Source: a virus. Taken from it: 64,000 nt of DNA. Of the stretch, positions 46,930-63,900 are shown one piece after another. The position numbers were made by a program, and so were the translations under genes. Positions within the stretch are counted from its first letter, which is position 1, and every line of letters begins with the position of its first letter. The notes under the pieces are model-generated. The model was not told the DNA's origin. It did not search any database and worked only from the letters and a program-made list of their open reading frames with translations. Location: IMG/VR virus record IMGVR_UViG_3300043466_001519, positions 49,986 through 113,985 of that record; one strand, written 5' to 3'.

Positions 46930-46961
46930 TTTGTTTTGTTTTATAATATTTAGTATATTTG
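46930..46961 (+). promoter_or_regulatory. Consensus Bacteroidetes promoter of a homing endonuclease
   Basis: TTTG at 46930-46933, exactly 20 bases, and TATATTTG at 46954-46961: a full match to the Bacteroidetes consensus. The start site would be about 46968, giving a leader of some 17 bases before ATG 46985. The -7 box lies inside an inverted repeat. Confidence 0.75.
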
Positions 46962-46981
46962 TTCTTATAAAACAAATATAC
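46953..46981. repeat. Inverted repeat over the promoter, operator candidate
   Basis: GTATATTTGTT (46953-46963) and AACAAATATAC (46971-46981) are perfect 11-base inverted copies around a 7-base spacer. The left arm contains the -7 box and the right arm ends 3 bases before the start codon, so a bound dimer would block transcription; as RNA, only the right arm would be fully transcribed. Confidence 0.6.
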
Positions 46982-46984
46982 GTC

Positions 46985-47764
46985 ATGGAAGAAATTTGGA
47001 AACGGGTAGAAGGATTTGATAATTACTTTATCTCTAATTTAGGAAATGTTAAAAGTGTTAAATCAAACAAAGAAAAAATATTAAAACCTAATAATTATAA
47101 AAATTATCCTTCAGTAGTACTGTATAAAGATAAAGTTTCATATTGTAAGAAAATAAACAGTCTTGTTTGTCAAGCATTTTTAAACTACACACCTAATGCA
47201 CAACCAAAAAAAGTAATTTATCATAAGGATAATAATCCTATGAATCTCAATAGTGATAATTTAGAAGTAATATCTCAGAAAGAAAATAGAGATAGAATAT
47301 ATATAAAAAAGTATAATTGTGTAGTTGATATTGATTCTTATGAATATAGAAGAATAGCATATATTTTAAAAAGAGAAAAAATAACAAGGGAAGAGTTTTT
47401 TAAAAATAAAGATAAATATGATATTTCTAAAACTAGGAAAAAGCATCTTCATTTAGATTTATATAGTTCAGAATACTATAAAACAATTTGGTTAAAAAAG
47501 AAATATAAAATAACCTTAGAGGAATATAATGAAATGTTAAAGAAACAAAAAGGAGTTTGTGCAATTTGTGAAAATCCTGAGACAGCTATTAATAAAAAAA
47601 CAGGTCAAATTATTGATTTGGCTGTAGACCATAATCATTTAACAGGAGAAAACAGAGGACTTTTATGCAATTCTTGTAATAGAGGTTTAGGTTATTTTAA
47701 AGATAATGTTAAATATTTGAATAATGCTAAAAAATATATAAATAATAACAATAATCAAGCGTGA
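46985..47764 (+). CDS. NUMOD4 plus endonuclease VII-type homing endonuclease, 259 aa
   Basis: N-terminal NUMOD4 domain (EEIWKRVEGFDNYFISNLGN), a following HNH-like stretch with VIYHKDNNPMNLNSDNLEV, and a C-terminal zinc endonuclease of the recombination endonuclease VII type: CAICENPE, AVDHNHLTGENRGLLC, CNSCNRGLGYF. It is a free-standing selfish nuclease. ATG 46985 is chosen because the longer TTG-initiated frame from 46931 would run through the promoter. It has its own consensus promoter and operator-like repeat. Two HNH-type parts in one protein are somewhat unusual. Confidence 0.8.
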   Translation: MEEIWKRVEGFDNYFISNLGNVKSVKSNKEKILKPNNYKNYPSVVLYKDKVSYCKKINSLVCQAFLNYTPNAQPKKVIYHKDNNPMNLNSDNLEVISQKENRDRIYIKKYNCVVDIDSYEYRRIAYILKREKITREEFFKNKDKYDISKTRKKHLHLDLYSSEYYKTIWLKKKYKITLEEYNEMLKKQKGVCAICENPETAINKKTGQIIDLAVDHNHLTGENRGLLCNSCNRGLGYFKDNVKYLNNAKKYINNNNNQA

Positions 47765-62623: not shown

Positions 62624-62797
62624 TTAATGTATTTGTAATTTTAAATCATCTACTACCATCCATTGACAATCACTTACTTTAGAAATACTTCCTTCTTCTT
62701 CAAGCTCATACATATATTCTTCTGCATCTCCAAAATCTGGAGAATAATTAAAAATTTCTACTGTTCCTGTTTGGAAATCTAATACTATTATTTTCAT
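62624..62797 (-). CDS. Small acidic hypothetical protein, 57 aa
   Basis: ATG at 62797 overlaps the TGA of the 33-aa gene upstream. The protein is acidic (FGDAEEYMYELEEEGSISKV) with beta strands at each end. No family recognised. It ends 2 bases before the nuclease start. Confidence 0.55.
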   Translation of the reverse strand: MKIIVLDFQTGTVEIFNYSPDFGDAEEYMYELEEEGSISKVSDCQWMVVDDLKLQIH

Positions 62798-62895
62798 AAT
62801 GTCTGTTTAAATGCTTCTATAATTTGAGGATATAATGCTCTCACCTCCCTTGGTACTCTTGAGAAAAACCATCTCACTTCTAATTGTTCTTTCAT
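62794..62895 (-). CDS. Short paralogue of the 77-aa protein, 33 aa
   Basis: EVRWFFSRVPREVRALYPQI and the following EAFKQTL match residues about 48-76 of the protein at 63667-63900 (EVRWFFQKVPKQVRDLYPII, ESFMQTL). The first ~45 residues of the longer protein are absent and replaced by MKEQL. It is either a functional minimal version or the remnant of a gene cut by the RHH/GIY-YIG insertion immediately upstream, whose stop overlaps its ATG. Confidence 0.55.
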   Translation of the reverse strand: MKEQLEVRWFFSRVPREVRALYPQIIEAFKQTL

Positions 62896-63479
62896 AATTT
62901 TGTTTTATATTTTGTTCCTTTTTTAGCTTCAGATATTTTTCTTCTAGTTTCTTCAGAAAAAACTCTTCCTTTTAAAGCTTTTGACATTTTATCAATTTCT
63001 TCTTGTGAATGCTTTTTACCTTTATTTGCTAGAGATATTTTATCTTTAGTTTCTTGAGAATGTTTTAATCCTTTGTTCCAAGCAATTCTTCCTATATGAG
63101 CTTTTGAAATTTTATCTTTTGTTTCAGAAGATAAAACTTTTCCAATCTGCCATTCAGACATCAACTTTTTAGTTTCATCAGAATGTTTTCCTCCTTTTCC
63201 TGGTTCTCTAGTATTTAAAACATCAATTCCTAAATTTTTATATTGATTCCAATATAAAATTTCATGATCATCTAAAGTCTTTTGATCAATTTGTTCTAAG
63301 AACTCATGTATAATTTCAAATACATGAGATTCAATACCATGTTTACTAATAGAGTTAAATAGTTTTATTTGTTTAGCACCTAAAGATTTCTTATATTGTT
63401 TAAATCTTCTTTCGATGTTCCAACTTTGTCCAATATAAACTCTACCAGTAGGACTTGTTATTTTATAAATTCCTATCAT
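62892..63479 (-). CDS. GIY-YIG homing endonuclease with NUMOD3 repeats, 195 aa
   Basis: GIY-YIG nuclease domain at about residues 3-90: GIYKITSPTGRVYIGQSWNI with R25, and E73 (DHEILYWNQY) as the likely metal ligand. Then NUMOD3-like DNA-binding repeats (SDETKKLMSEWQIGK, SSETKDKISKAHIGR, SQETKDKISLANKGK, SEETRRKISEAKKG). This is a free-standing homing endonuclease. Its ATG overlaps the stop of the RHH gene and its TGA overlaps the ATG of the 33-aa gene, so it is translated in a chain with them. Confidence 0.85.
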   Translation of the reverse strand: MIGIYKITSPTGRVYIGQSWNIERRFKQYKKSLGAKQIKLFNSISKHGIESHVFEIIHEFLEQIDQKTLDDHEILYWNQYKNLGIDVLNTREPGKGGKHSDETKKLMSEWQIGKVLSSETKDKISKAHIGRIAWNKGLKHSQETKDKISLANKGKKHSQEEIDKMSKALKGRVFSEETRRKISEAKKGTKYKTKL

Positions 63480-63610
63480 TACATTAAGTCTTGAATAATA
63501 ATCAATCTAATATATGCTGATAGACTAAGTCCTAGCGATTCAGCTTTTCTAACTAATTTTTCTTTTACTTCTCCATTTATACGAAGTAAGATAGTTTCTT
63601 CATTTTTCAT
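63479..63610 (-). CDS. Ribbon-helix-helix repressor candidate, 43 aa
   Basis: ETILLRINGEV is the strand, and KEKLVRKAESLGLSLSAYIR the two helices of a ribbon-helix-helix DNA-binding fold; the length is minimal but complete. ATG 63610 lies directly downstream of a consensus promoter, and the TAATG link places it in one unit with the GIY-YIG gene. It probably binds as a dimer to the inverted repeat at 63608-63636 and represses its own promoter. Confidence 0.7.
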   Translation of the reverse strand: MKNEETILLRINGEVKEKLVRKAESLGLSLSAYIRLIIIQDLM

Positions 63611-63636
63611 TTGTATATGTTTTTGTTATACAAATG
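63608..63636. repeat. Inverted repeat over RHH promoter, operator candidate
   Basis: CATTTGTAT (63608-63616) and ATACAAATG (63628-63636) are perfect 9-base inverted copies 11 bases apart. One arm overlaps the -7 box and the other the start codon of the RHH gene. Confidence 0.6.
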
Positions 63637-63662
63637 TAATACAAGTATTTTAATCTACCAAA
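63631..63662 (-). promoter_or_regulatory. Consensus Bacteroidetes promoter of the RHH/GIY-YIG unit
   Basis: On the minus strand: TTTG (63662-63659), exactly 20 bases, TACATTTG (63638-63631). Full consensus match. The RNA would start about 14 bases before the ATG at 63610. Confidence 0.75.
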
Positions 63663-63666
63663 TTTT

Positions 63667-63900
63667 TTATCGTAAAGTTTGCATAAAACTTTCTATTATT
63701 ATTGGATATAGATCTCTAACTTGTTTAGGAACTTTTTGAAAAAACCAGCGTACCTCGCAAGAATATGCTTCACCTTTGTCATCTAATCCTTGAGGATGTA
63801 TTAACCAGAAATAGTGATATTTACCTTCATGTTCTATGTGGCCTTCATGCCACACCTCATTGAATGAGGGAGTTTTGTTTATTGTTATTGCGTTTTTCAT
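63667..63900 (-). CDS. Hypothetical protein with WFF..VP module, 77 aa
   Basis: N-terminal part (INKTPSFNEVWHEGHIEHEG, then KYHYFWLIHPQG) is beta-rich; residues about 48-77 form the CEVRWFFQKVPKQVRDLYPI module also found in the 33-aa protein at 62794. No known family. Starts by ATGA overlap with the partial gene upstream. Confidence 0.55.
   Translation of the reverse strand: MKNAITINKTPSFNEVWHEGHIEHEGKYHYFWLIHPQGLDDKGEAYSCEVRWFFQKVPKQVRDLYPIIIESFMQTLR

What the first reader, a model, noticed from the sequence alone, without database searches (positions are those of the whole stretch)
62892..63662. Self-regulated RHH plus GIY-YIG cassette
A 43-aa ribbon-helix-helix protein and a GIY-YIG endonuclease are coupled by TAATG, driven by a full-consensus promoter with a 9-bp inverted repeat over the -7 box and start codon. 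This is the layout of a toxin-antitoxin-like autoregulated operon, applied to a homing nuclease. A homing nuclease with its own dedicated repressor is not something I know as a described arrangement.
Basis: partly seen in the sequence, partly recalled or inferred. Interest (0 to 1): 0.75.

Follow-up and report, generated by a model that had tools for sequence, protein, structure and literature searches.

The report
Homing nuclease cassette with own repressor
A mobile DNA-cutting gene in a bacterial virus travels with its own promoter and a tiny DNA-binding protein that probably switches it off, and the same pairing recurs with several kinds of cutting enzyme in other viruses, pointing to a little-noticed way in which selfish genes restrain themselves.

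Summary
At 62892-63662 (minus strand) a Bacteroidota-type promoter (TTTG-N20-TACATTTG) drives a 43-aa ribbon-helix-helix (RHH) gene overlapping (TAATG) a 195-aa GIY-YIG/NUMOD3 nuclease gene; the inverted repeat has 10-bp arms (CATTTGTATA-N9-TATACAAATG), not 9. The pair is not unique: 12 viral contigs carry the RHH gene, the same 12 carry the operator motif, and all have a nuclease next, of three makes at two insertion sites. It is a homing element: in the window it lies inside a 77-aa gene whose 3' end was replaced, with the displaced native end downstream; at the other site the same module splits a gene's 5' end. Cassette DNA is 95-98% identical where phage flanks are 81-83%. Other small RHH-like genes precede several kinds of nuclease in other, partly huge, phages. 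Best reading: a dedicated Arc/CopG-like autorepressor of a mobile nuclease cassette. Binding and repression are inferred, not shown. Main rival for the repeat: an RNA hairpin blocking translation of read-through transcripts (I-TevI style). One relative has a broken RHH gene beside an intact nuclease, arguing against an essential antitoxin.

The parts
63659..63662 (-). -33 box TTTG, first element of the module (TTTGGTAG)
   Evidence: invariant in all RHH-bearing relatives aligned; coordinates
63631..63638 (-). -7 box TACATTTG (consensus TAnnTTTG)
   Evidence: consensus in PMC7366714
63639..63644 (-). upstream half-site TTGTAT, 11 bp from the next TTGTAT (63628-63633); direct repeat in the promoter spacer
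   Evidence: invariant in this module's lineages; 11 bp is the best-scoring lag; 10 of 384 control starts reach this score
63608..63636 (-). inverted repeat CATTTGTATA-N9-TATACAAATG, proposed operator over the -7 box and start codon
   Evidence: same motif in exactly the 12 RHH-bearing viral contigs; one place without mismatch in the 114-kb record
63479..63610 (-). RHH gene, 43 aa (proposed autorepressor)
   Evidence: Pfam NikA-like 3.8e-6; pairwise dN/dS mostly 0.05-0.25, highest 0.45; Foldseek NikA, Arc, CopG at probability about 0.9 (E-values about 1)
62892..63479 (-). GIY-YIG homing endonuclease with four NUMOD3 motifs, 195 aa; start overlaps the RHH stop (TAATG)
   Evidence: NCBIfam grpIintron_endo above cut-off
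63667..63900 (-). chimeric 77-aa target gene; its 3' part (about 63667-63771) is the replacement carried by the cassette
   Evidence: 117/129 identical to empty-site L086 in the first 129 nt, then 67/102
62794..62895 (-). displaced native 3' end of the target gene, now a 33-aa ORF
   Evidence: 86/92 identical to the uninterrupted gene of L086; intact homologues end in the same peptide

Best explanation
A mobile, self-limiting homing cassette. It carries its own Bacteroidota-type promoter, an Arc/CopG-like RHH repressor of 43 aa, a GIY-YIG nuclease translationally coupled to it, and a recoded copy of the end of the gene it invades. After entry the free promoter fires and repressor and nuclease are made together; the nuclease cuts cassette-free alleles in the 77-aa gene, repair copies the cassette in, and the replacement 3' end keeps the gene readable and probably uncuttable. 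As RHH dimers accumulate they bind TTGTAT half-sites over the -7 box and start codon and shut the promoter, limiting off-target cutting. Shown by sequence: anatomy, recurrence, mobility, gene-end replacement, exchange of nucleases behind a constant RHH module, conservation of the promoter-operator. Inferred: RHH binding, repression, timing, and the cutting site.
For: (1) RHH and promoter are constant while the nuclease varies: RHH proteins 91-93% identical sit before a GIY-YIG/NUMOD3 nuclease (window), a GIY-YIG/NUMOD1 chimera (L164) and a GIY-YIG only 27-28% identical (L165, L167). (2) Empty sites, displaced ends and a deletion scar show insertion and loss. (3) Horizontal movement: window against L003, cassette 95-98% and flanks 81-83%; against L165, RHH 93% and flanks 74-77%. 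(4) RHH under purifying selection, dN/dS mostly 0.05-0.25. (5) The 64-bp promoter region is better conserved than the RHH gene across lineages (83% against 70%, window and L004), including the spacer half-site. (6) Other small RHH-like proteins precede GIY-YIG, LEM-3-type GIY-YIG, EndoI-like and probable HNH nucleases in other phages, with 11-bp repeats before their start codons in most cases, rare in controls (10/384).
Against: No binding or expression data. L003 keeps an intact nuclease with a stop codon inside the RHH gene. The repeat could act as RNA, and two RHH-less nuclease genes have similar repeats. In five contigs an RHH-like gene of the third group stands without a nuclease. The RHH assignment of the second and third groups is weak by profile (Arc at E 0.68, ranked below an unrelated protein; no significant Pfam RHH match), and the AlphaFold monomer of the second was one long helix. 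The 11-bp lag was chosen after seeing the data.
Confidence: 0.7

Rival explanations
1. The inverted repeat works as RNA, as for I-TevI of T4: transcripts reading in from upstream genes fold a hairpin over the start codon and are not translated, while transcripts from the cassette's own promoter start inside the spacer and lack the 5' arm. The RHH protein then has another or a minor role.
For: The read-through RNA folds at -9.5 kcal/mol (z -3.85) with the AUG in the stem; an RNA starting in the spacer does not. The genes around it are co-directional. RHH-less nuclease genes at window 46985 and in L011 have similar repeats that fold. The scheme is known in T4 (PMC2988022). The change in L165 (CATTTG to CGTTTG) would keep a G-U pair.
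Against: Does not explain the conserved RHH gene, the conserved half-site outside the hairpin, or the direct repeats before the third RHH-like group. It may act in addition to repression.
Confidence: 0.3
2. RHH and nuclease form a toxin-antitoxin pair: the RHH protein neutralises a toxic nuclease by binding it.
For: Gene order, overlap and autoregulation-like promoter; weak matches to RelB, HicB and CopG antitoxin families.
Against: 43-44 aa is just the RHH fold, whereas antitoxins usually have a second domain (PMC4803016); near-identical RHH beside unrelated nucleases; intact nuclease with broken RHH gene in L003.
Confidence: 0.06
3. The RHH protein is a targeting or accessory subunit of the nuclease, as NikA is for the NikB relaxase.
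For: Closest profiles are NikA-like, MobA and MbpA mobilization proteins.
Against: The same RHH accompanies cassettes at two different insertion sites, while the nuclease's own DNA-binding tail changes; the conserved repeats lie in the cassette's own promoter.
Confidence: 0.08
4. The RHH gene is an ordinary phage regulator that nucleases happened to land beside.
For: In L243, L244, L245, L250 and L251 an RHH-like gene of the third group stands without a nuclease.
Against: In the window's group the RHH was found in no record without the nuclease, moves with it and shares its insertion boundaries; in the other groups it precedes nucleases at several genome locations, twice in one contig.
Confidence: 0.1

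Closest known systems
I-TevI of phage T4 (GIY-YIG homing endonuclease that represses its own promoter)
   Same: GIY-YIG nuclease with an operator over its own promoter; the hairpin-on-read-through logic also fits here
   Different: In T4 the nuclease itself is the repressor and lies in a group I intron; here a separate RHH gene is the proposed repressor and no intron was found
Small Arc-like repressors of CRISPR-associated transposons (PMC9938897)
   Same: Predicted RHH proteins of 53-72 aa dedicated to a mobile element
   Different: Placed in reverse orientation upstream of cas12k, not before a homing nuclease
C proteins of restriction-modification systems and the omega repressor (PMC3874152)
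   Same: Small autoregulator of a nuclease or toxin operon, sometimes translationally coupled; omega is RHH and binds repeats cooperatively
   Different: C proteins are HTH activator-repressors; omega controls a toxin-antitoxin pair, not a homing nuclease
Mitochondrial mobile ORFs of Allomyces and Glomus (PMC3630166)
   Same: Homing nuclease with a replacement 3' gene end upstream and the displaced native end downstream
   Different: No promoter or repressor gene is mentioned in the passages read; fungal mitochondria
Arc and CopG repressors
   Same: Minimal RHH proteins of 45-53 aa; fold matches to 1myl and 1ea4
   Different: DNA binding and repression are proven for those and untested here

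Membership tests
Free-standing GIY-YIG homing endonuclease | GIY-YIG catalytic domain with NUMOD-type DNA-binding motifs | tested here: met
   PF01541 30.8 bits, PF07460 82 bits, both above cut-off
Free-standing GIY-YIG homing endonuclease | insertion in alleles that also occur without it | tested here: met
   empty sites L086, L088, L106 and others
Free-standing GIY-YIG homing endonuclease | cleaves the cassette-free allele | not testable with these tools
   needs protein
Group I intron endonuclease | lies in a group I intron | tested here: not met
   no group I intron match in Rfam at the locus or in the window
Arc/CopG-type RHH autorepressor | short protein with the RHH fold | tested here: met
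   43-44 aa; NikA-like above cut-off; Foldseek NikA, Arc, CopG. The strand is not modelled in the monomer
Arc/CopG-type RHH autorepressor | binds repeats at its own promoter and represses | not testable with these tools
   repeats present and conserved; binding untested
Type II toxin-antitoxin system | antitoxin has a toxin-binding region and a fixed partner | tested here: not met
   no extra domain in 43 aa; partners unrelated
mORF-type gene-hybrid homing element (Allomyces atp6 type) | replacement gene end plus displaced native end around a homing nuclease | tested here: met
   definition PMC3630166
I-TevI-type nuclease autorepression | the nuclease itself binds the operator, which resembles its homing site | not tested
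   the operator stays constant across unrelated nucleases, which argues against it

The most novel reading that the evidence does not exclude
Repressor-armed homing elements are a general class: small RHH autorepressors have been joined, more than once, to homing nucleases of several catalytic types in unrelated phages. The repressor may also give the resident phage immunity, by silencing a second copy of the element arriving in co-infection, and may outlive the nuclease as a solo gene.
Probability: 0.3. Interest if true: 0.8.

Novelty: new variant of a known kind. Interest (0 to 1): 0.62.

Why it matters
How free-standing homing nucleases avoid harming their host is largely open: the T4 review consulted describes the nuclease as its own repressor, RNA hairpins, or no promoter of its own (PMC2988022). 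A separate, portable repressor module that stays constant while nucleases are swapped behind it would be a new solution, directly testable with a gel shift and a reporter. The cassette also shows in a phage the trick of replacing the end of the invaded gene, known from fungal mitochondria, at both a 3' and a 5' gene end.

Tried and rejected
Nothing at DNA level among annotated phages, and no RHH relative there. RHH search in bacterial and archaeal genomes: pattern hits only, none confirmed. Flavobacterium phage FL-1 has a related nuclease (38.5%) with no annotated gene in the 237 b before it. Group I intron rejected. Defence system: PADLOC names the nuclease only as homing endonuclease and the RHH not at all. 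AlphaFold of the second RHH-like group gave a single helix, so no fold search was run on it. Rarity of the inverted repeat alone was rejected as an argument. No paper describing an RHH repressor paired with a homing nuclease came up in the open library; subscription papers are mostly not covered.

Full report
What is there. The window is part of a 113,985-base virus record, probably a Bacteroidota phage: the best named relative of its RecA is from a Chryseobacterium phage, 44% identical, and its promoters have the TAnnTTTG box. On the minus strand, 62892-63662 holds a complete small operon. The promoter is TTTG (63659-63662), a 20-bp spacer, TACATTTG (63631-63638) and 20 bp to the ATG. The first gene, 43 codons, is RHH by Pfam (NikA-like, above cut-off). 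The second, 195 codons, starts inside the first gene's stop (TAATG) and is a GIY-YIG nuclease with four NUMOD3 motifs. The inverted repeat is CATTTGTATA-N9-TATACAAATG; its right arm ends with the start codon.

Is it more than chance? A 10-bp inverted repeat as such is not rare in this AT-rich window (7 observed, shuffles 2 to 14). Its position is unusual: of 180 starts preceded by TAnnTTTG in all loci fetched by then, only five have arms of 10 bp or more, and all belong to homing-nuclease genes or operons (three are this module). The promoter block survives across lineages: 83% identical between the window and L004 where the RHH gene is 70%. A scan of viral contigs for the operator motif returned 12 contigs, the same 12 that an RHH protein search returned, and all 12 have a nuclease gene next; since operator and gene are adjacent this shows co-occurrence, not independent support. 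In the 114-kb record the operator occurs at one place without mismatch.

It is a mobile element. Uninterrupted relatives of the upstream 77-aa gene end in ...VRWFFSRVPREVRALYPQIIEAFKQTL and run straight into the next gene. In the window that gene is 91% identical to L086 for 129 nt (117/129), then 66% (67/102); the native end (86/92) lies after the nuclease as a 33-aa ORF. So the cassette entered the gene and brought its own 3' end, as mobile ORFs do in Allomyces and Glomus mitochondria (PMC3630166). L004 has remains of the native end fused to its nuclease ORF, and L145 carries the replaced end plus the first bases of the module (AAATTTGGTA) and then the native end: a scar of loss. At a second site the arrangement is mirrored: in L164, L165 and L167 the native first codons of the next gene (a distant exonuclease VIII relative) lie before the module, and the gene after the nuclease has a recoded start. 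Cassette DNA is 95-98% identical between the window and L003 while neighbouring genes are 81-83%; against L165 the RHH gene is 93% and the neighbours 74-77%.

The RHH is the constant part. Behind 91-93% identical RHH proteins stand three nucleases: GIY-YIG/NUMOD3 (window, and L003 with its broken RHH gene), a GIY-YIG with a NUMOD1 tail (L164), and a GIY-YIG only 27-28% identical to the window's (L165, L167). Site of insertion follows the nuclease tail, not the RHH. That argues against the RHH as targeting subunit and against a nuclease-specific antitoxin, and for a regulator of the shared promoter. dN/dS of the RHH gene is mostly 0.05-0.25, highest 0.45. A fold search with the predicted monomer finds NikA, Arc and CopG (probabilities about 0.9, E-values about 1); helices 13-25 and 30-42 are modelled, the strand is not, as may be expected of an obligate dimer.

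Recurrence. Only one of the other nuclease loci of the first search (80 loci) showed such a gene on inspection, L039. Following it gave a second group of small proteins in 9 viral contigs (up to 349 kb), each immediately upstream of a GIY-YIG nuclease, at several genome spots. A relative in a 735-kb phage (LR756501) precedes a probable HNH nuclease (my reading of the sequence, not a Pfam match), and the third group it belongs to precedes GIY-YIG, LEM-3-type GIY-YIG and an EndoI-like nuclease, twice within one contig; five members have no nuclease. These proteins resemble Arc only weakly (E 0.68), so their RHH status is likely, not established. In most of these promoters repeats with an 11-bp lag precede the start codon; 10 of 384 control starts reach the same score. 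The lag was picked after inspection.

Mechanism and rivals. I favour autorepression (0.7). The strongest rival concerns the repeat: in read-through RNA it folds over the AUG (-9.5 kcal/mol), and RNA from the cassette's own promoter would probably lack the 5' arm, the scheme known for I-TevI (PMC2988022). Two RHH-less nuclease genes have such repeats. Both may operate, so the confidences of the two are not exclusive. Toxin-antitoxin is unlikely: no second domain, changing partners, and L003 with a stop codon in the RHH gene beside an intact nuclease.

Novelty. Small Arc-like repressors are reported in CRISPR-associated transposons (PMC9938897) and small autoregulators in restriction-modification and omega systems (PMC3874152). 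I found no description of one for a homing nuclease. Hence: new variant of a known kind.

Limits. The 12 contigs are about seven lineages; several are near-identical to the window. No binding, expression or cleavage was tested. L003's stop could be a sequencing error.

Noticed in passing
window 46953-46981: Perfect inverted repeat (11-bp arms, 7-bp spacer) over the TATATTTG box just before an Endonuclease VII/NUMOD4 gene starting at 46985; folds at -10.8 kcal/mol as RNA; no RHH gene seen there.
   Followed up: partly
L011 2965-3005: A GIY-YIG nuclease gene without an RHH gene has a 28-bp perfect palindrome over its -7 box up to the start codon.
   Followed up: partly
L145 3200-3262: Deletion scar: replaced 3' end of the target gene plus the first bases of the module, then the displaced native end; the element was gained and lost.
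   Followed up: yes
L003 2870-3001: RHH gene has an in-frame TAA at codon 25 while the nuclease behind it is intact and 96% identical to the window's.
   Followed up: yes
L243, L244, L245, L250, L251: Solo RHH-like genes upstream of a TnsA-like nuclease gene, at or near the place where L242 has RHH plus a probable HNH nuclease.
   Followed up: partly
L246 3001-3850 and L249 3001-3973 (one contig): Two RHH-nuclease pairs in one phage with different nucleases (EndoI-like with NUMOD3; LEM-3-type GIY-YIG).
   Followed up: partly
L003 1793-2422 and L006 1918-2505: A second probable GIY-YIG-like gene (no Pfam match for the L003 copy) lies a few genes upstream of the cassette in two relatives.
   Followed up: no
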